The notes under the pieces were generated by a model. That model did not search any database. It saw nothing but the letters and a program-made list of their open reading frames with translations, and was not told the origin of the DNA. Shown in pieces: positions 12,592 to 34,522 of a stretch of DNA of 64,000 bases. Made by a program: the position numbers and the translations under genes. The stretch comes from Thecaphora thlaspeos (Eukaryota; Basidiomycota; Ustilaginomycetes; Urocystidales; Glomosporiaceae): NCBI GenBank assembly GCA_900291925.1, contig UWYS01000008.1, forward strand, positions 248,001 to 312,000. The letters are read 5' to 3'. The first letter of the stretch is position 1; every line of letters starts with the position of its first letter.

Positions 12592-15192
12592 CTACGATCC
12601 ATTGCCACCACCTCCTCCTCCTCCGGCACCGCCGCCTTTACTCGCCGTAGCTGAGGGCTTTGCACGCGGAGGCGGAATCGGCATCGAGCCAGGAAATGGC
12701 ACCCTCAAGTTCCAGTTTCGCTCTGCGCACACAGCAACGATGACAAGACGCATCGACGAAAAGAGGACAGTGAGTCCGCCGCTCAGGGACGACAGAAGAG
12801 AGCGACATGGGAAAGAGAGGGAAAACTCACCGAGGTGTAGCTGGACGTCCCGCACTTCTAGCTTGTCGCCTCGCCGATGTTTGGCAAGATGACAACCCAT
12901 CTGCGTGACACTCTCGATGAACTCGTCGGCAATCTCGAGCAGCAGCTGTGGGGCCAAACCCGTGGTGGGGCAGACACGTCGCGGGCTCAGCGCAAGTGTC
13001 CAATGATTCTGGCCGCGAGAGAGAGAGAGAGGGGAGAGGGGCAGGGCGGTTTAGAACTCACATCTTCAACATCGCCCTCGAGCCTCTCGTTTGCGTCAAT
13101 CTCGCCGATCAGATCCTGGATCTTCCTCTTGGTCAGCAGACGGTCGTCCGCCCCTCCCACGACACCGGCAGAGTCTGCACCGTTTGCCGTCGCGCCGCCG
13201 CCCAGGTTTCCCGCAAACCCTGCGCCGAGACCGTCGCTCGCACCAGCCAGTCCGCCGCCCGCTGCCGTGTCGGTGCCAAAAAGGTCATTGCCGTCTCCGC
13301 CTGCCATGCCGCCTTCGCGCGCAGCGATGCCCAGCAGCTCCTCCCAGCTCGTAGAGGCTCCATCTTGCCCACCGCCTCCGCTCGCGCCCGTGCTCCCGTC
13401 GGGCCCCACTCCACCGTTGCCGGCCACAGACGCTTCGTCGCCCCCGCCGCCATTGCCAGGGCCGAGCGGGTTGGGGCGTTGCAGGACGGCGGGTGTGCCC
13501 AGCACCGGGGCCGTGCCCAGCCCTTGCGTCAGAGTGGGACGCGGGCCGGCCGCGTTGGGAAAAGGCTCCGGCCTTACCGTAGGCGAGACGTTGAGCGTTG
13601 TGGGGATCACGCTGACGCCGTACGCGGTCGACGTCGCGGGCGTAGCGGAGACCGCTGCCGCAGGTGTGACGGCCAGCGGTTGACCGGGCGCCACACCCGG
13701 CGGAGGGACAGAGCCCGACGGCGTGGTGCCGATGCCGCCGCCATCAAGGGGCGGCGATCCTGCTGCACCAGGAGCCGGCGAGGGCTTGGCTCCACTTCCA
13801 GGCCCGGCGCCACCAGGCCCAACGCCCGGTGCACCCGCCGCCGACGGTGGGCCTGCCGCCTGCCTTCCGACCGCTGTCACCGCTGCCATAGCTGCCGCTG
13901 CCGCTGTGGCGGACGCTCCCTGCGCATGGGCAGGCACGGGGCCCTGGATACCAGCGGCCGAGGTCGGTGGTTGTGGCTGTGCCTGCGGGGATGGCAGGGG
14001 CAGGGGTTGCGCCTGGCCTGGACCGCCCGAGCCTGGTGCCAGTGACGCGGCGGCGGGCGAAGCAACAGCGCTAGCTTTGGCAGCGGCGGCCTTCTTGGCG
14101 GTCGTCTCCTTGCCTCCTGCGACCTTGCCTCCTGCGGCCTTCTTGCCGGTCACCTTTGCCGCCGGCTTGGCGGCAGGCGTTGCTGCGGCCGCCTGAGGTG
14201 TCGCCTTCTGTTGCTGCTGTGCCGGCGTTCCCGCGCCTCCGCCGGCCTGCTGCTGCTGCTGGGGCGTGCCCGGTAAAGCCTGGCCCTGCACCTGAGCCTG
14301 TGCTTGCTGCGACGTAGGACCGGCTGGCGCGGGCGACTGGCTCTGGCCAGCTTGTGCTACCTGAGCCTGCCTGGCGGCGGCGGCCTGTGCCTCCTTCTGG
14401 CGCATCGACTCGCGCAGCAGGTGGATCTGCTTGGCCAGATTCTGCAGCTGTGTGCGCGACTCGTTGAGGGCGTTTGTGTACTGCTGCCGCTGCTCAGGCG
14501 TCAGGTTCTGGTTCTTGAGCGCATTCTCAAGCGCCTGAACTTTCATCCGCATCGGCTGCGAGAAGCGGTTGAACTGCTCCATCAGCGCCGCCTCGTTCTG
14601 CGGTCCCGCAGCCTGGCCTGACGTGCCGGGTGGTGGCCTCGCCGCTGTGCCGGACGCGGCGTCACCGCTGCCGGAGTGTGGCGGCCGCACCATGCCCTGT
14701 TGCGGTTGCGGTTGCTGTGGCTGGTGCTGGGGCTGTGACTGTTGCGAGGGATTCTGGTTGGGTTGCATCATAGCAGCCGGTGGTCTCGGCATCTGCTGCT
14801 GCTGAGCTTGCTGTACCTGCTGCTGCTGAACCTGCTGGATCTGCTGCATCATGGTGTCGGCCATCTGAGGATTGACCTGCTGCTGTTGCTGTTGCTGCGG
14901 TGTCTGCTGCTGCTGCTGCTGCTGCTGCGGTTGTGGCGAGATCTGAGGCATTCCCTGTTGCTGCTGCTGAGGCGGGCACACCTGCTGCTGATGCTGCTGC
15001 TGCTGCTGTTGCTGCTGTTGGGCCTGATGTGCGCCAAGGAGGACGCGGAGCTGGGCCAATTGTTCCTGGCTGACCTTGCCCTCCCTCGCCGCGTTGACAA
15101 AGGCTGCGAGACGCTCCGGATTGTTCTGGAGTAGAGCCTGGAGGCCCTGAAGCCCTGGCACTTGGCCAGCAGCCTGACCCTGCTGCTGTTGC

Positions 15193-15242
<50 letters not shown>

Positions 15243-15602
15243 GAAAGGAAGTTGCTGCTGATGGTTCTGCTGCTGCTGAGGTGGCTGAGGCTGGCCATTA
15301 GGCGGGCGCGGTTGCGCCTGACCCGGATTGCGACCTTGAGCCTGGGCGGCCTGTGTGGTGCGCATGGCCTGAAGCTGCTGCTGCTGTGCCTGCAAGAGGG
15401 AAGCCTTGTACTGCTGCGCTTGTAGTGCCCCGGCGTTCTGGCCCTGCATGGCAGCCATCTGTCCGGGCTGCTGCTGCTGCTGTTGCTGGGGGGTTCCGAG
15501 CTGCGGCGTCTGTTGCGGTTGCTGCTGCTGCTGCGGTGAGATTCCAGGGGTCCCAACGGTGGGCTGGCCGCTCGGACCGGACGGTTGGTCTTGCTGGTTC
15601 AT
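12592..15602 (-). CDS. TAF12: Transcription initiation factor TFIID/SAGA subunit 12 (TAF12) with very long polyQ N-terminus
   Basis: Three exons (13062-15602, 12831-12945, 12592-12722) give 928 residues. The C-terminal histone fold is diagnostic: [15 protein letters not shown], then across intron 1 [13 protein letters not shown] and [21 protein letters not shown], and after intron 2 [13 protein letters not shown]12 pairs with TAF4 in TFIID and with Ada1 in SAGA through this histone-fold heterodimer, in the nucleus. About 800 residues precede it: long glutamine runs (CAG/CTG repeats around 14800-15240), a basic alanine/lysine patch (KKAAAAKAS area) and proline/glycine-rich stretches typical of activator-binding disorder. 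TAF12 in yeast is 539 residues, so this is an unusually long version. The tail after the histone fold ends in a glycine run. The ATG at 15602 is the first in frame. Confidence 0.9.
15181..15242 (-). repeat. Coding polyglutamine repeat in TAF12
   Basis: Tandem CAG/CAA codons (CTG/TTG on the plus strand) encode about 20 glutamines, the longest of several such tracts in this gene. Confidence 0.95.
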
Positions 15603-25445: not shown

Positions 25446-27869
25446 TATCGGGGTGAGGTGTTCCTCTTGAACCGTCTAGTGAGCGACTCTGTGGCGTTCG
25501 AGGGATTTCGGGGACGTGCAGTGTGAGCTGAATGGAGCTGCTGCAGTGTGGCGAGTGAGGTGCGACGAGGCCAGTGGCGTAGACTGGGCGTTTGAGTGGG
25601 TCTAGTCGTCAAAGTGTCCTGTCCGGCTGTCTTAGATGGCAGATGTATGCGGCGATGGCGGCGGCGGCGGCGGCGGCGCGAATGGCGGTGTCGTGAGAGG
25701 AAGGGAGCGGGAAGGGAGGTGACGTCGACGTTGATGGCTAGGAAACAGTCGATGGAAAGATGGAGGTGGATCCTGAATGAGGGGGAAAGGGGGGAAAGGG
25801 GGAAAGGGGGAAGAAGGAAGGGGTAAGGGGGGGCGTGAGATGGCGGCAAGGGTTATGTATCCTGACACTCCTGTCCGGGCGTTGCCTTTGGCGCCCGTGT
25901 GAACGGAGAGAGGGAGCGCGAGGGGGCGAGGGGGCGAGGGGGCGAGGGGAGGGGGTGGACAGAGGGCACCCAAAGCAAGGCGGGGCAGGGCAAGGCAGGA
26001 GGCGCTCACGCTCAGATGGCGACGCCGTCGGCCAGCCCGAAACAGCAGGCCGACAGGCAAGACGACAGGCGCCCGCTCACACCGACCTGTCGATTTCCGC
26101 CAGAGAGAACCGGAAAGGCAGGCGCGGCAGCGAGGCGAGGCGAGGCGAGGCGAGACCAGCAGAGCGCGAGCGGGGCAGCACCCGTCTACCCATCCGCCCG
26201 CCGTTTCTTTTCCTACACCGCGACGACACAGACGGGAGCGGGCCGCCTGTCAAACGGGCAAACGGGCAGGCCGTCTATGGCCACGACAGAAGCATGGAAG
26301 CGGCAGAGGCACAGGCAGGCAAGGGTCGGGAAGCGTTCTGCCACTCTACGGTGCTCGCCTGTCTGCCTGTGCCATCATCTACAGTGCAGGGCCTGCTACT
26401 CAGTCTGATTTCCAGTCCTGGGTGCTGCCTGCCCAAGTTGCAGACGGGGCAGGCGAAGGTGAAGGCGAAGGCGAGGGAGAACTCTAGCACGTATGCACCG
26501 TGGAGTAGACGGGGCCAGGAGAGGGAGAGGTGGATCGCATGGTGGGCGCAACGTCGAGCGAGGTACTGTACGCGTTCAGCCAACCCTGGGCATGGGAAGG
26601 AAGGAAAGGGCGTGATGCCCAGACAGCAGCTTGGCTTTCAACTCGACCTCTTCCATCCGCCCGGCCCTGAGTTCGATCGCGAAAGAGCACACAACGCATG
26701 CTCGACGCTCTGCGTGTGGGCTCCTCGCGCCGCACACAAGACCAGAACAGGTCAGAGGCCGGCCGAAAGCAGTCGTCTCACGAGGTGTCCAAGGGCGTAC
26801 GCCTGGCACCGCCGTCACTTGCCGTGCCTTCGCGCGCTCTTTCGCCGCCGTCGTCATCGTCGTCGTCGGCGTTCCGCGCACGCATATACGTCGAGGTGCA
26901 ACGTCTGCTTCTCCACCACCCTGAGCCCAAGAGGACCCGAGGCGCTCGGCTCCTCTATCCTGCTGAGGACGAGACAACCAAGACCATATGGATCTGGCTG
27001 TATACCGGTGTGATGCTTTGGCGGACGGCGTGTTATGGGTTTGCACTTCTGCAACGAGCAAGCTCACGCCAGGCGGGCAAAGGCCTTACATAGCTTGATG
27101 AAGTGCTCAGGGCAAGATCTGCAAGTCGAAAGCACATTGCTGACGGAGATCGATAGGATCCGGGCCTTGGAATACAGCCCTGGCCTGTGCCGCCATGACA
27201 CGGCATCGGCCCGAGCAGCAGAATGCGCGACTACGCCCCTTATGCAGAGTAGTGTAGCTTGTCAAACGCCAGAGCAACCGGCTGCCCAACAGCATACAGA
27301 GAGAGTAACTATATGCTCTTAGGCAATCCCTTCAGCCACGATTCTCTGCCCTGAAGCTGCAGTGACGAAATTGTGTTGCCTAGGCTCGCGGATTTCGAGG
27401 CGAGCTCGATAGCACCTGTAGCGTCCAAGTGCTGGCGTCTTGAGGTCAGAGTCGTTGCCATCGTCGTCGATGGCTCTTTTTTGTTCATCGACTGTATCTC
27501 TGAGGAACCATGACCGCCTCTCTAGCCGCCCACCGCCGTCGTGGTAACTTACTGTAAGAGTTGCTCGAGAGGTGATTTAGGTAGTCAGCCTCCAAGTTCC
27601 TCTAACTATCCCCTAAGCATCTTAGCTCAAGCTTCCTATGCACGGCGCCTTTTCTCACACCTCGCATGCTCGCTTGCCCCGGATCTCTACATTTTTCCTT
27701 TTTCGACCAGAGCATGACACTCACCGCCGGATGCTGGGTCTGCCGTTGGCAGCCGACGCTTTTCCGGGTCTGAGAGAAGCCTTCCTCTTGTAGCGCCGCA
27801 GAACGGACTCGAGGTCTGGACGTGTCAGGTCCAAATGGCACCAGGAACTGACGAGATCTCGACAGAGGC
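25446..27869. other. Long intergenic region upstream of the zinc-finger gene
   Basis: No gene is supported. It contains a G-rich GGGGGAAA repeat (25781-25830), several A/G/C-biased patches and many stop-free but domain-free frames, the longest being 25835-27013 (plus, starting GTG). The long upstream space is usual for regulatory genes. CpG frequency is still high here and falls abruptly at its right end. Confidence 0.45.
25781..25830 (+). repeat. GGGGGAAA repeat, G-quadruplex-capable
   Basis: At least five G runs of four or more separated by AAA/AAGAA. It lies about 350 bases upstream of the zinc-finger gene start. Confidence 0.85.
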
Positions 27870-30760
27870 ATGGCAGGACTTCTGCCACTACTTTTCTGGT
27901 CTATGGTGGATTTGGTAGTCTGCCAGCCAAACCATGAGGAGCAGGACCAACACCTCTTTGCCATGTCTGTCCCTTGCTGGCAGCCATACCATGTTAGTGT
28001 ACTGTATGAACCACACCTCTAAAATGGCCAGTCATGGTAGCCAGCCAGCCAAGCTCAGACACAGCTGCAACTTGAGCCTCTGCAAGATATGTAAGTGTTC
28101 ACTGGCAAAGCAACAAAAAGCTACAGGTGTATCCAAGGCATCAAAGCATAGGCCAAACCTATTGTCTTGTCAGCAATGAAGGTAGCAAGGGTACAGCATG
28201 AGCTAGAGACCACAGGTGCCCTTTCTCTTGTTGGAGTCAGATGCCTTGCATCTCATTGTGGAGCAATCATCAGAAACCCTTGAGATACTAGTATCCTGCC
28301 TCCACTGCAATCCCTGGGAGCCAGCAAAAAGGTGGTGGTCCCATGTGAGGTGTCCCTCAAAGCAGATGGAGGGGGGGGGGGGATTGGGGAATTGAGACCC
28401 CCTTGGACTTACAGTGTGGGGACAAATTGAATACGGCTGTCATGCTATGTAAGAAGCCTGTAGCATGTCATGACCTGAAGTGTTATACTGTACATGTTGG
28501 AGTTCTTGCTCTGCCAAAGCCATTTGGTGGCCACTAGGCCAGGGGGCATTTGCCAGCTCCTGTGTGGATCTTGGTTGCTTGGGTGACAGCAAGTGGTCAA
28601 GTGATTGGCAATTGGAAGGGTCTGTGCTGTTCCTACATACAGCATACATAGGTACCAGACCATGAGATGACCTACAGTAGCTTGGGACCCCTTTTGCATT
28701 GCTTTGTATGCATCCACTTTGAGGTCATGTACTGCACAGTACAATGATCAAGTGTATGTGGTGGTGGCTTGTTTGAGCCCCTTGCTGTAGGTGGCATTCC
28801 TGGATCTGTGCCCCATCTTGTGCCATCTGGTTGCATGACAGTACTGTATGCGGTGCTTATTGTCACAGAGAGGAGCTGGAAAGTGAGATCCCTCATACTT
28901 GGACCTGACAGAAGTGCTGCCTTGTTGGCCATGTGAACACAGCAAATGCCGTTTGCAACAGCATATCTGAATCTGCTGTTCACACAGATGAGCCCTGACA
29001 GTCAATCTCCATTGCAGATGTCCAAATGGGCAAAGCCAGTGGCCAATATATATGTATAGTACAGTACACTTGCCTTGAGGCCTGCACACTCTATCTTTGA
29101 CAGAGCAGACACAGTCAGTTACAGTCAAGGCATCAAACAATTGGCAGTGTTGACCCCTGCAATTGCTTGTCAAATCCAGCATTGATGGTGGTGACACTGA
29201 AATGTGCCACAATTTTCCACCCTTTTTTCATCATGTTTTCCCAGAGTTGGTTTGTGACAATAGCAACAGGATGGCTGTGCCCAGCACTTTTCACTGCCAC
29301 CAAGCAGCACAGCATGGCTGACCTGCACTTGAGAATGCTCAACCTTTTTTTTTTTAGACTACATGGCCCCCACACACCTAGCAAGGACAAGTTAACTATA
29401 ACAAGCATGACCAAGTTGTGGTCCAGCATTGCCACCACAGCACAGGACCAACAAGAGCAATGCTTCACAAATGTCTGTGGCATTGCTGGTTGATGGCAAC
29501 CAATTTGTGTCTGTTGTACAGCAATGGCAAGTACAGCAATAAAAGCGGTAGTGTGACTAGCTGTGGGCATTGCCCTTTCTACCCATTGTAATGGCTCTAG
29601 TTAAACTTGGTGCTGCACCATTTCTTGAAAAGGTTTCTTGGCTCTATCCAGACCCCGGGTCTCAGAAGCTTGGCGCAATCCACATGCCAGACTGCAAGGG
29701 GGGAAAGAACTCTGCAACTGCTGCAAGCCTCCATCTTGCATTGACTTTTGGAGAGGCAGGCTATGCATTGTATGTAAAACCAGAGACAGAAGGGAATTGG
29801 CAGTGAGGCTGTGCACTGTGCAGCATGGCTGCCTTTGCTTCCTTCATCCCAAGAAGACCAATGACACTGGCATGAGATGGGAAAGCAAACAATAATGCTG
29901 GTACACTTTTGTCAAGAAAAGGTGTGATCTTGACCCAGGAGGATGGTGTGATGGGATTGCTTTCTACTGGCCAGCAGGTGAGGTGGGTACATACCAGCAT
30001 GCAAGTGTATGTAGTTACCCACAGATGTATGTATGCAGCACATGCATAGGGCATACACATCTGGGGTGATTGGCCACTGCCCTTGGACCTTCTTTTCCCC
30101 CTACTTTTGGCCCTCTTCCCTCCTTCCTTCTCTTGTTCTCTTGACGCTAAGAGGCTAGTCTGCAGGTCATGTGTGCAATCATCTTAGCAGGAGAAAGCAG
30201 CTGTCATCCAGCAAAGTCCCCCAAGGTGGGTGAATGAATGTCAGGAGTTGTACCTTGCAAAGATGCTGTCATCACCAAATTGCAAGTTTCTGCTGTCTCC
30301 CATCTTGGTGCAGCTGTTGCCTGCCATTGCTCCTCTGTCCAAACAGGCCCAAGACTCCCAGCATACATGTATGACCTTTGCACTCCCATCCACAGGATTT
30401 GGCACAGCAGACAACAATGACTGCCAAAGCATGTGCCAGGTCTCACTCACTGCCTCCCCTGGAGTCTAAAGTTTCTCAGCTATGTGTGAGATGCTGCATA
30501 TTCACCATAGCCCTTTCTGCCCCCTACCCCAAGCCCTCAACAACCGTCTCCTCTAGTCAACTTTGTCGCTCCAAGATTGTCTCTGTTGCCACCATGTCAT
30601 CCTTCTCCTACCTGCCTTGGCTACTGAGTTCACCTCTACAGGTACATACACTCACAAACCATATCTACAGAGTACCACAGTGTCTCCTGGACCCAGACAG
30701 GTCCCAGTCACCCTTGGCCCCAACCATTGGGGATAATGTTTCAGTGAGTTGTCATACTCT

Positions 30761-30780
30761 ACATACATTACAGTGTATGT
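30761..30780. repeat. Short inverted repeat ACATACA...TGTATGT
   Basis: A 7-base perfect inverted repeat with a 6-base loop inside the CpG-depleted island. It could be part of a transposon end; no matching partner was established. Confidence 0.5.
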
Positions 30781-32009
30781 ACAACAACAACAATCACAAC
30801 AGTCACCACAAGGGAGAGTCTCAGTCTTCACCAGCGATTTCCAAGTGCCTATTTTACACATGATGCCTGGCAGAAAGCTCAGAGCCTGCTCAAGTCTTAC
30901 ACATGACTATGCCACAGATGATGGTGACTACATCCACAAATCAAATTATATGTCCCCAGATCTATAATTGCCTATTGTGGGAAGTAGGCCATATGCAACT
31001 GTACAGTAGTTACAGTTGTTGGAATACAGATTAATCCTAGCTATTAACTGTTGATCCAGGTCAATTTTGTGTAGTTGGTTCTCTTCAACAGTAACCTTGG
31101 CATTGAGTCATTGATGGGCTGTGGAGGATTTGCTGACATCTGTTGTTTCTTCTCACACCACCAGGCTGGGCTCATACTGTGTGTAGATATGAACTGCTGC
31201 CCCTGCTACTTTCCGCAATTGAAAGAAGTTGCCAGGACCTTTGGATCCTGGAAATGACAAGGTTGTCTCTCCCTGGATACCATGACAAGTTGCCTTGTGT
31301 CACAGCTGGGCAGTGTGGGCAGCAACTTGCTCTCTGGCAAGCAAGTCTCTTGTCAGGGTACAGAGACTTCCTTGCCACAGGACCAAGTCCATGGGGAACA
31401 GCAGGTTCAGGACAGCAGTAAAGACAATCATGCATGGTGGGCAAACAACACAGCCAGAGCTGGACATCAGGCAGGTATTGGGAAGGGCCATTGGGGGCAA
31501 GGCACATCAAGCCAGTGCACCAGGCATTTTTGGGACAAGTGGGGCAAGGGCTATTGTTACTGGGTGCAACCTCCAGGCAACAGGATATGAAGACAAGGTG
31601 TCTGCTTGTATATATAGCTAAGCCGCTCTATGGATGAGGACTGGGTCCAGCATCCAGTCTAGTCAATACACAGTTGTTACAAGCTTGCCACACTGCCCAT
31701 GGAGAGCCTGACAACACATTGCTAGCTTTGCCACAACTGTCAACATGCATTGCAACATCAATACAAACCTGACCATCTCCCCCACATGCACAACATGCTT
31801 GCAAACAGTGCCTGTAAGCATTGCCAACCAAATTTGACCACCACCAAGTGTCGCTCTGCCACCAAGTGTTGCTCCACCCTCTGACATGGGCACCAAAGTG
31901 GCAACAGCCCTTGAGCAAGAGCAACTTCCTTGGCAGGGAGCAAGTAGGCCTGTAGACTTCCTCCCAGTTGAGCAAGTTGCTGTGCCTGACAACTGCTGCC
32001 ATTACATCT

Positions 32010-32664
32010 CCTGTGTCCCAGCATGCACCTTGAACCACCTCTCTTTTGGCCCTGCTGGCATGACAACACATTGCTGAGCTCCAACTCCCATCACAAACCC
32101 TGTCTCATCCATGTTGAAGATCATGTTGGCTCAGACGTTGTACTCATGTATCTTAGCCTTGAAAGCCAGGAACCACTCCCTCACCCCCTCTTCCATGACT
32201 GCCTTGATCTGCGAGTTGTTGAGACATTGAGAGAAGTGGCTGCAGAGGTCTGGGTGTTGAATGAGGAAGCCTTGTAGCCAGCCTTGCCCTAGGGTTCTCT
32301 GCTGCTTGTGCCCATTGACTGTAGGTAACATGATGGTCTCTGCAAGGTTGTGGATGCTGGCAGTTGTCAATGGGAAGCCACACAATGTGCACTGGGTGAT
32401 GTGGGAGGCAAGTGTGGCTTCTGCGGCAGCCAATAGAGCTTGAAGGTGTTCATGAGATTTGAGCTTCAATATGCAGCCATTGACCCAGTTGCTGAGCATT
32501 TGTGGGGCAATGCTGTTGGCTCTGGCAGCAGCAGCAGCACTACAGTGCATACCAGAAGCCAATGCTCTCATGGCCTGCTTGATCCAGACCTCTTGCTCTT
32601 GCCATTGTTGAGCTGCTTTGATATGGTTGGTCTTTTGACAGGGCAAGACCTGTGTTGGCAGCAT
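32010..32664 (-). mobile_element. Decayed pogo/Fot1-type (CENP-B HTH + DDE) transposase fragment
   Basis: The frame at 32131-32664 encodes a CENP-B-type helix-turn-helix protein: an alanine-rich HTH region, SIHNLAETIM, then LGQGWLQGFLIQHPDL, the Tc5/CENP-B DNA-binding signature of pogo-family transposases. It continues to HEYNV and hits a TGA, directly followed in the same frame by ANMIFNMDETGFVMGVG, the first catalytic Asp block of the DDE domain, then further residues before another stop near 32010. The rest of the DDE domain, including the second Asp and the C-terminus, was not found. The TGA can be explained as CGA to TGA by loss of a CpG. Pogo elements move by cut and paste and insert at TA. 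Terminal inverted repeats could not be fixed. Confidence 0.75.
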
Positions 32665-33030
32665 GTTGTTTTTGAAGGCTGGGGGTGCTGGATTGAGGTG
32701 GAGTGCTGGCCATGTGTGTTGTGCAAGTCTGTTGGTGTCTGCTGATAGTGCTGGGTGGAGGATGTGTAGAGGACATAGTAGAGGTGATCACAGCCAAAGG
32801 TGTTGGTGGTGCAGAAGCAAAAAAGGCAGGCAGGCAGCATCTGAGCTGTACATGCATCCAGGCTCTATGTCAATCACATTAGTTGGAGGTCAAATCTCTG
32901 TGTGCAATTAGGCCTAGGAACCAAGCTATATCTTCCCACCAGTAACAGCATCCTCTTGCTTCAAGACACCTTTTTTTCTTTTTCTTTTTGCATTGTTGCA
33001 GGCTAAGTATTACTGTACTACATAAGTTTG

Positions 33031-34522
33031 TTGGCGAGCAGGGCAACATGCAAGTGAGCCTGGTCATGGCATCGCAAATGGCGACAAGCGTTGCCTACGC
33101 TTGGCTGTCAGCTGCGAGATGCCCACCCGCCTCCACCCACGGACGGCAAGGAAACCACAACTTGCTCGCTCGGCGTGGAAAGTGAGGCTCACGGTCTCCT
33201 CGATGTGCGCGTCCCACATACATGGCACACGCTACCAGTACAGTGGTATTCATGATTGTGCATCGGGCTCGTCAAACGTTCGAAATGCTTCTCATCGGGT
33301 CCCGAGGGAACCGCGGTGTGGGGTGGCCCTCTGACGGCTACGTGACGACGCGATGCAAGACGCCTGTACGGTGTCGCGACGCATGGGAACTTTTCGCCAA
33401 TCTCAAGCAGTCCGGGCCTTGGCAAGCAGTTGACTAGAGCCATCCATCACCAGCCGTTCCCATTTACTTGTCTGTCTGGTGGAGATTCGGCTGAGCACAC
33501 AGAGTCTGGGTGATGCCGTGCGTCACTTACAGACCAGACCAGAGTGTAAGTGAGAGGACCTCACCGGCCTCGCAGCAGCGACTCAAGCGCGTCGCGACGG
33601 CCTCGTGTGAGCCGCGGAGGAGAAGCTGGATCGCGCCCCACCCATCGAAGACACTCCAGAGCTCTGGATTGGCTTCTTTGTGTACAGCGGCCATATGAGC
33701 ATTCCTCCTTGCGCGGCGTCATTGCCTCCTGCGATCCATCCAAGATTAAGTCTTGTATAGATGAGTTTTCATCAACCCTTTCTCCCCGCACTTCGAGCGG
33801 TAGGGAGGCCATGGCAGCGAGCAGACTGCGCTGCCTAGGCCAACTCGAACCTAGACGACTGGGTGGCGGCGCCGGGGCTCGTAGCGTCGTCGAACGAAAA
33901 CAGGACAATAGGTGATGCAGCAGATACTTGGGTCGGCTGGGCTGGACTGAGTTGTTCGCGTGTTTTACGCCGTATCATTAGCTATACATGGTCTGAGACT
34001 TGTAGCAGGAAGTCAGCGGGGGAAGCTGAGGGAAGAACAGATGCGACTGAGTGCAAAGGGCGGCCAACGCCAGGGCCGAGGCCGCGCGGTCGAGCAGATG
34101 TCTTGTGAGCAGCTACCAGAGAGTGAAGGGAGAAGAAAAAGGACAAAAGGACCAAAGAAATCGATGGAAAGAAGCCGAGGCACCACCAGCAAGAAGAGAG
34201 CCGTCTCGTGTTCCGGGGAGCCGGCAGAGAGGCCGAGGTGCCAAGTTGGAGAACAAGAGAGAGCCCTTGGTGCAACCAGAAGCGGGAGAGGACGAGGGAC
34301 GCCGTCGCCATTGCCGATTGGCCACAGCTAAGCCGTCAAGTCGACACAGCTTAAGGAAAATCCCTGCATGTGCCGCGACTGCACACTGGTCGCTCTTCCT
34401 TCGCAGCGGCGCAATTCATCTTTACTTGTTTCCTGGCCCGCTCTGACCGACCACGGGCATCGGTGGCATACACTTTGGAAACACGGGCGCGGGGCGTGGC
34501 GCAAGCGAGGTACGCGACCTTT
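33031..34522. other. Intergenic region, right flank of the island
   Basis: CpG content is back to the genome norm from about 33030. No coding frame with a recognisable domain; the frame at 33561-33908 (minus) is the longest with ordinary composition, but it has no domain. Confidence 0.45.

What the first reader, a model, noticed from the sequence alone, without database searches (positions are those of the whole stretch)
27870..33030. Sharp-edged CpG-depleted island: footprint of CpG methylation or a RIP-like process
Seen: about 5 kb with almost no CpG (four in 28201-29580) and excess TpG/CpA inside a CpG-rich genome, with boundaries within about 100 bases. Known: deamination of methylated CpG gives TpG/CpA, and RIP-like CpG mutation has been reported in some basidiomycetes. 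Inference: this species has, or had, CpG-directed silencing of repeats, and this island is its record. The surrounding genes keep normal CpG, so the process was confined to the repeat.
Basis: partly seen in the sequence, partly recalled or inferred. Interest (0 to 1): 0.8.

Follow-up and report, generated by a model that had tools for sequence, protein, structure and literature searches.

The report
CpG-erased transposon island in smut fungus
A 5-kb stretch around dead transposons in a smut-fungus genome has lost nearly all its CG letter pairs through C-to-T changes favouring the triplet TCG, most likely the scar of DNA methylation used to silence transposons; such scars are known in fungi, but this TCG preference had been tied to a different fungal group.

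Summary
Window 27861-33034 has CpG observed/expected about 0.05 against 1.04 outside, TpG/CpA about 1.7, and edges within about 100 bases. The genome is smut-clade (DNMT5 83% identical to Thecaphora frezii). Paralogs give direction and specificity: of 56 CpG in an intact LTR copy, 52 are TpG or CpA in the island and 1 is kept; non-CpG C>T is 9/146. Depleted copies lost CpG independently and without strand runs. Where one strand alone reads TpCpG, that strand mutated in 86 of 95 cases (8 of 8 sites by majority). Young CpG-rich transposons show the same bias, and one recombinant LTR lost 10 of 40 CpG with 0 of 407 other changes, so the process acted recently. 'Confined to the repeat' is not supported: two thirds of the island is single copy in this assembly. 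Best explanation: CpG methylation of transposon-seeded heterochromatin followed by TpCpG-biased C-to-T mutation. DNMT5 is the only open C5-methyltransferase found; a DNMT1-like gene and an SRA gene look broken. Known kind (basidiomycete 'RIP-like' CpG loss), new variant: TpCpG bias outside Pucciniomycotina. No methylation was measured.

The parts
27861..33034 (.). CpG-depleted island (16 CpG; o/e about 0.05; TpG/CpA about 1.7; GC 49%)
   Evidence: HMM and maximal segment put the right edge at 33072, the last base before the first outer CpG (33035) is 33034
27862..31290 (.). Fully depleted DNA with no second copy in the genome except three matches of 71-109 bases; no protein family recognised. 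Host intergenic DNA or a transposon remnant too old to recognise
31298..32006 (+). LTR-like repeat (TGTCAC...TTACA, 709 bases), one member of a family with more than 25 places in the genome; 1 of 56 CpG kept relative to intact copy C23:150936-151629. This copy shows no target duplication of its own
   Evidence: perfect 5-bp target duplications read by eye at 4 of the 12 other copies printed (L008, L013, L021, L023)
32007..32879 (-). Truncated Tc5/pogo-type DNA transposon ending in an eroded terminal inverted repeat followed by TA (32880-32881); 86% identical over 831 alignment columns to a CpG-rich copy at C29
32131..32664 (-). Remaining 177-codon frame, weak match to HTH_Tnp_Tc5 (E 2.5e-4, 21.4 bits, just under the 22.2-bit cut-off)
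32882..33034 (.). 153 bases beyond the transposon end without CpG: overshoot of the depletion to the right edge

Best explanation
The island is the mutational scar of CpG-directed cytosine methylation of a heterochromatic patch seeded by transposons in an Ustilaginomycotina (smut-clade) fungus. Model: transposon insertions nucleate a methylated domain that also covers adjacent single-copy DNA; CpG methylation is maintained by DNMT5; methylated cytosines turn to thymine, fastest where the base before is T, until almost no CpG remains; unmethylated genes next door keep CpG, giving sharp edges. Shown by sequence: CpG-only loss, independent loss in different copies, both strands, TpCpG bias, extension over DNA that is single copy in this assembly, recent action in one LTR, an open DNMT5 gene. 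Inferred: that 5-methylcytosine was the intermediate, that DNMT5 placed or kept it, and that the domain is or was heterochromatin.
For: Direction and specificity: C29 transposon copy versus island, 52 CpG become 25 TG, 22 CA, 2 CG, 3 other, while non-CpG C>T is 15/162 and G>A 6/200; LTR copy L013 versus island, 56 CpG become 24 TG, 28 CA, 1 TA, 1 CG, 2 other, non-CpG C>T 9/146 and G>A 9/147, transversions 2.5%. Independence: TG/CA choice agrees between copies in 0.636 of sites (sd 0.064), 0.613 expected from context alone, 77 pairs; the context rates were fitted on the same copies. No strand runs: z from -1.24 to 1.22 in 16 of 16 depleted copies tested. TpCpG: at CpG on which the three intact copies agree, the mutated strand is the TCG strand in 86/95 and the GCG strand in 16/90 copy-by-site cases; by sites, the TCG strand has the majority in 8 of 8 and the GCG strand in 1 of 8. 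Fitted rates relative to GCG: T 6.8 (95% CI 4.4-12.0), A 1.9, C 1.6. No TpC excess at non-CpG cytosines (after T 4/242, A 20/421, C 17/411, G 34/709). Recent action: L015 equals L013 over 487 aligned bases except at CpG, 10 of 40 CpG lost against 0 of 205 non-CpG C/G and 0 of 202 A/T sites. Single-copy spread. Machinery: open DNMT5 frame with DNMT and SNF2 domains; best solved match 7r76 (1292 bits, listed as 'DNA repair protein Rad8'; that this is Cryptococcus DNMT5 is recalled); Argonaute frame open.
Against: No methylation was measured. An SRA (UHRF1-type) gene and a DNMT1-like gene in the same genome look broken, so methylation may be reduced or gone today. A several-fold TpCpG preference is not what I recall for plain spontaneous deamination of methyl-CpG in mammals. 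The single-copy part could be an old transposon whose relatives have decayed beyond detection. In L015 losses cluster at one end of the fresh patch (9 of 19 CpG against 1 of 21, p 0.003), but the other end also borders depleted DNA and shows no such loss.
Confidence: 0.72

Rival explanations
1. A true RIP-like process: a homology-triggered, perhaps premeiotic enzyme mutates CpG (favouring TpCpG) in duplicated DNA and leaks into neighbouring single-copy DNA; methylation is not needed or comes later.
For: Repeat linkage and bimodality: LTR copies at similar non-CpG distance keep either most or almost no CpG. TpCpG matches the signature described for Pucciniomycotina (passages). Fast CpG loss with no other change in L015. 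Leakage of RIP into neighbouring single-copy DNA is described (passage).
Against: 3.4 kb of DNA single copy in this assembly, as depleted as the repeats; no strand runs; intermediate copies (L007 0.35, L019 0.19, L033 0.32); CpG-rich multi-copy elements 93-99% identical to each other are far from saturated; no RID-type gene recognised among the two C5-methyltransferase genes found, though no tree was built.
Confidence: 0.2
2. An APOBEC-like deaminase or other TpC-preferring mutator acting on exposed DNA.
For: Preference for a 5' T at CpG.
Against: At non-CpG cytosines TpC is the least mutated context (4/242), and loss is concentrated at CpG.
Confidence: 0.03
3. Foreign DNA acquired from a CpG-poor source.
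For: Sharp composition edges.
Against: The island's repeats have CpG-rich paralogs in the same genome and differ from them mainly at CpG, independently in different copies.
Confidence: 0.01

Closest known systems
RIP-like TpCpG hypermutation of transposons in Pucciniomycotina (Microbotryum; Horns et al. 2012 is not held here; known from passages of PMC5381629 and PMC4014442)
   Same: C-to-T at CpG with a strong 5' T preference, in transposons, both strands (here; passages)
   Different: Here the host is Ustilaginomycotina, nearly every CpG in all contexts is lost, and DNA that is single copy in this assembly is included. PMC4014442 describes the TpCpG bias as specific to Pucciniomycotina (passage).
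CpG methylation followed by deamination in basidiomycete transposons (Masc2/DNMT1-class link, PMC4352252)
   Same: CpG-only C-to-T signature in species without a RID gene (passages)
   Different: That study tied it to a Masc2-like DNMT1; here the DNMT1-like gene looks broken and DNMT5 is open. Of base contexts beyond dinucleotides I saw only a mention of TpCpG in Microbotryum.
RIP marks reported in Ustilago hordei repeats (PMC4081816, citing earlier work)
   Same: A smut genome with mutated repeats beside complete elements (passage)
   Different: No base context is given in the passage I saw.
Cryptococcus/Kwoniella DNMT5 with loss of the de novo enzyme DnmtX (PMC11185503)
   Same: DNMT5 kept while a BAH-plus-DNMT type enzyme is lost (passages)
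   Different: Here the DNMT1-like gene is still visible as a broken gene, in another subphylum; its orthology to DnmtX is untested (26% identity to an 800-residue Kwoniella protein that may or may not be DnmtX).
Neurospora RIP
   Same: C-to-T decay of repeats
   Different: CpG, not CpA, context; no strand runs; no RID gene recognised

Membership tests
Basidiomycete RIP-like TpCpG hypermutation | C-to-T concentrated at TpCpG on either strand | tested here: met
   TCG strand hit in 86/95 cases, majority in 8 of 8 sites, fitted rate T 6.8 relative to G; other CpG contexts are also nearly exhausted
Basidiomycete RIP-like TpCpG hypermutation | confined to repetitive DNA | tested here: not met
   3.4 kb single-copy part of the island and two of two further depleted flanks are single copy in this assembly; old unrecognised repeats not excluded
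Basidiomycete RIP-like TpCpG hypermutation | host in Pucciniomycotina | tested here: not met
   DNMT5 nearest to Thecaphora, Pseudozyma, Testicularia, Violaceomyces, Ustilago
RIP sensu stricto (Neurospora) | CpA context | tested here: not met
   non-CpG C>T in depleted LTRs: CpA 34/600, CpC 23/601, CpT 18/582, against near-complete CpG loss
RIP sensu stricto (Neurospora) | RID/Masc1 methyltransferase homolog | tested here: inconclusive
   two C5-methyltransferase genes found: DNMT5 and a DNMT1-like gene; no tree was built
RIP sensu stricto (Neurospora) | homology-triggered, premeiotic | not testable with these tools
   needs crosses
5mCpG deamination footprint | CpG replaced by TpG or CpA about equally, others largely spared | tested here: met
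   25:22 and 24:28, CG-to-TA 0 of 52 and 1 of 56
5mCpG deamination footprint | 5-methylcytosine present at CpG of the domain | not testable with these tools
   no methylation data
5mCpG deamination footprint | CpG methyltransferase encoded in the genome | tested here: met
   open DNMT5 frame at C4; its CpG activity is known for the family, not tested here
DNMT5 | C5-MTase domain plus SNF2 ATPase in one protein | tested here: met
   PF00145 and PF00176 in one frame, 2306 residues held of 2575 open; 7r76 aligned over residues 419-1974
DnmtX-type / DNMT1-like enzyme (C21) | BAH plus DNMT domains in a short protein | tested here: inconclusive
   DNMT pieces clear, BAH weak (17.7 bits, cut-off 30.8); frame interrupted

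The most novel reading that the evidence does not exclude
In this smut the only working C5-methyltransferase is the maintenance-type DNMT5; a DnmtX/DNMT1-like enzyme and the SRA partner have recently died. Old transposon domains are still methylated by inheritance, spread slowly into newly recombined DNA (the L015 patch), and are erased by a TpCpG-preferring conversion of methyl-CpG, so the basidiomycete 'RIP-like' TpCpG signature would be a property of DNMT5-type methylation rather than of a dedicated RIP enzyme.
Probability: 0.2. Interest if true: 0.75.

Novelty: new variant of a known kind. Interest (0 to 1): 0.5.

Why it matters
Whether 'RIP-like' mutation in basidiomycetes is a dedicated mutator or the by-product of CpG methylation is, as far as the passages I read show, open. 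This genome separates variables that often go together: no RID gene was recognised, the DNMT1-like gene looks broken, DNMT5 is open, CpG loss covers DNA that is single copy here, and the TpCpG preference described as Pucciniomycotina-specific is present. The recombinant LTR L015, with CpG losses and nothing else changed, is a natural experiment that times the process and shows it acting recently. If DNMT5-type methylation itself carries the TpCpG signature, old mutational scars become a record of methylation for genomes in which it can no longer be measured.

Tried and rejected
Horizontal transfer or a composition oddity: rejected for the repeat part because CpG-rich paralogs in the same genome differ from the island mainly at CpG. 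An APOBEC-like TpC mutator: rejected because non-CpG TpC is the least mutated context. Amplification of one already depleted master copy: rejected, since TG/CA states agree hardly more than context predicts, except for related sets (L011/L012/L014, L009/L017/L018 and L073/L074). Pfam scan of ten of the 15 frames listed for the single-copy part (one of the ten runs into the LTR) found nothing meaningful (best E 0.15). Residual CpG context in 69.6 kb of depleted DNA shifts only modestly (T 144 and G 317 of 836 sides; in ten CpG-rich transposon or LTR loci T 509 and G 787 of 2396), weaker than the alignment result. Tet_JBP search found nothing, but no control genome rang, so it says nothing. Depletion edges inside LTR copies were considered as domain edges; L032 may be recombinant, in L025 both halves are nearest to the same subtype, so I do not lean on them. 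Literature: TpCpG with repeat-induced point mutation gave 4 papers, none by title on Ustilaginomycotina; searches showed no report of TpCpG bias in a smut in their listings (several capped at 20 rows) or in the passages I read. No paper was read whole; most subscription papers are not held, and Horns et al. 2012 is not held.
Full report
What was checked. CpG o/e falls from about 1.0 to 0.00-0.12 in each of the ten 500-base windows between 28001 and 33000 and returns at once outside. The island holds 16 CpG between 27861 and 33034; TpG and CpA rise to 1.68 and 1.72. Twenty 2.5-kb tiles from 19 contigs show o/e 0.88-1.22, with no 200-base window under 0.51.

What lies in it. The right third is repeat: an LTR-like element at 31298-32006 (ends TGTCAC...TTACA; family found; perfect 5-bp target duplications can be read at L008, L013, L021 and L023 among the 12 loci printed, none at the window's own copy) next to the truncated end of a Tc5/pogo-type transposon, 32007-32879, closed by an eroded terminal inverted repeat and TA, with a 177-codon remnant weakly matching HTH_Tnp_Tc5, just under its cut-off. 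The depletion runs 153 bases beyond that end. The left two thirds, 27862-31290, have no second copy beyond three matches of 71-109 bases and no recognised protein. Two of two other depleted flanks tested (673 and 911 bases) are also single copy. Old repeats whose relatives have decayed are not excluded.

Which organism. The DNMT5 protein is 83% identical to Thecaphora frezii, 81% to Pseudozyma flocculosa, 70% to Testicularia and Violaceomyces and 67-69% to Ustilago relatives: Ustilaginomycotina, species not named. Four of four contig ends looked at carry TTAGGG repeats.

What happened to the DNA. CpG-rich and CpG-poor members of the same families coexist. Against a CpG-rich transposon copy on C29, the island changed 47 of 52 CpG to TG (25) or CA (22), kept 2 and has 3 others; non-CpG C>T is 15/162 and G>A 6/200. 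Against LTR copy L013, 52 of 56 CpG are TG or CA and 1 is kept, with 9/146 and 9/147 at other C and G sites. The ratio of CpG to non-CpG loss is thus at least about 65 for this pair (my arithmetic: -ln(1/56) over 18/293). L008 has kept 0 of 56 CpG at 7.3% non-CpG divergence, while L024 and L021 keep 40 of 54 and 32 of 56 of L013's CpG at transversion distances of 4.4% and 4.1%. So loss depends on the copy and its place, not on age alone. Among 28 LTR loci (L007-L034) 24 overlap a depleted segment by more than 15 bases; of 15 DDE_1 loci fetched (of 46 matches) 7 do. These shares are biased by how the loci were found: a depleted query for the first, best protein matches for the second.

Different copies lost CpG on their own. 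The choice of TG or CA agrees between copies in 0.636 of shared sites, 0.613 expected from context alone (77 pairs; context rates fitted on the same data), and shows no strand runs in 16 of 16 depleted copies. Where exactly one strand reads TpCpG, that strand mutated in 86 of 95 cases; where exactly one reads GpCpG, it mutated in 16 of 90 (13 copies, sites on which the three intact copies agree). By sites that is a majority in 8 of 8 and 1 of 8. Fitted rates relative to G are T 6.8 (4.4-12.0), A 1.9, C 1.6. Young CpG-rich transposons show the same bias, 27 of 31 (overlapping pairs, not independent), and already a several-fold CpG excess (for example 11 of 62 CpG against 4 of 401 other C/G sites between L064 and L076). 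Outside CpG there is no TpC excess. Residual CpG in depleted DNA lean the same way only modestly.

A natural experiment. LTR L015 is a recombinant: its first third differs from L013 at 32 of 158 non-CpG sites, and the remaining 487 aligned bases are identical except for 10 of 40 CpG lost (0 of 205 other C/G sites, 0 of 202 A/T sites; Fisher p 5e-9). Nine of the ten lie among the 19 CpG nearest the 3' end, against 1 of 21 elsewhere (p 0.003). CpG loss therefore acted after a very recent exchange. It may have crept in from the depleted neighbour at that end, but the other end of the patch also borders depleted DNA and shows no such loss.

Machinery. DNMT5 (C4) is open over 2575 codons, with MTase and SNF2 domains and a strong match to solved chain 7r76 (listed as Rad8, recalled as Cryptococcus DNMT5). 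A second C5-methyltransferase gene (C21) matches DNMT1 and a 912-residue Testicularia protein (40%). Its frame is interrupted by an in-frame stop between the weak BAH-like and the methyltransferase parts and by a frame shift after motif IV (motif number recalled), where relatives read on; a short intron over the stop is not excluded. An SRA gene (C18) has an in-frame stop and a frame change, judged by eye against the recalled family pattern, not against an aligned relative. Both have normal CpG. With DNMT5 and Argonaute open, assembly error is an unlikely but untested reason. Two UDG/TDG-family matches are present.

Interpretation. CpG-only, two-strand, locus-wise loss over transposons and adjoining single-copy DNA is what methylation of heterochromatin would leave; the TpCpG bias and the speed are what has been called RIP-like in Pucciniomycotina. 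I put the first at 0.72 and a RIP-type trigger at 0.20; the two overlap, since a methyltransferase may itself promote the change. The link to DNMT5 is inference from gene content.

Known and new. RIP-like marks in a smut (Ustilago hordei; passage), CpG-type decay in basidiomycetes (passages) and TpCpG in Pucciniomycotina (passages) are in print. I found no report of TpCpG in Ustilaginomycotina, with the limits of that library and of capped listings. PMC12543289 (passages) concludes that RIP-like defences share a CpA preference, which this genome does not follow. DnmtX loss with DNMT5 kept is described for Cryptococcus (passages).

Limits. No methylation data; under 2% of the genome seen, most of it through repeats, so the total extent is unknown; counts over related copies are not independent, though near-duplicates were dropped from the context counts.

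Noticed in passing
L001 (C21:100353-103628, minus strand): DNMT1-like methyltransferase gene with an in-frame stop and a frame shift while DNMT5 is open: perhaps a dying second methyltransferase.
   Followed up: partly
L077/L078 (C18:458029-459061, minus strand): SRA (UHRF1-type) gene with an in-frame stop and frame change, judged by eye; pieces of a young CpG-rich transposon lie just downstream at C18:456713-457600.
   Followed up: partly
L027, L028, L029, L030 (contig ends of C21, C19, C22, C17): Subtelomeres carry LTR fragments in CpG-depleted DNA running up to the TTAGGG repeats.
   Followed up: partly
L073/L074 (C18:134622 and C18:138366): Two inverted copies of a depleted transposon, 99.9% identical over 1534 bases and about 3.7 kb apart; in L074 the depletion edges lie within about 25 bases of the copy ends.
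   Followed up: partly
L018 (C3:4971-5660): The two 5-bp target duplications of one LTR read CCGAC on the CpG-normal side and CCAAC on the depleted side.
   Followed up: no
L025 (C21:444717-445159), position 1806: Depletion edge lies inside one LTR copy; both halves are nearest to the same subtype.
   Followed up: partly
window 14501-15500: Milder CpG dip (o/e 0.45-0.67) with GC 63% and TpG up to 1.89: probably biased coding sequence.
   Followed up: no
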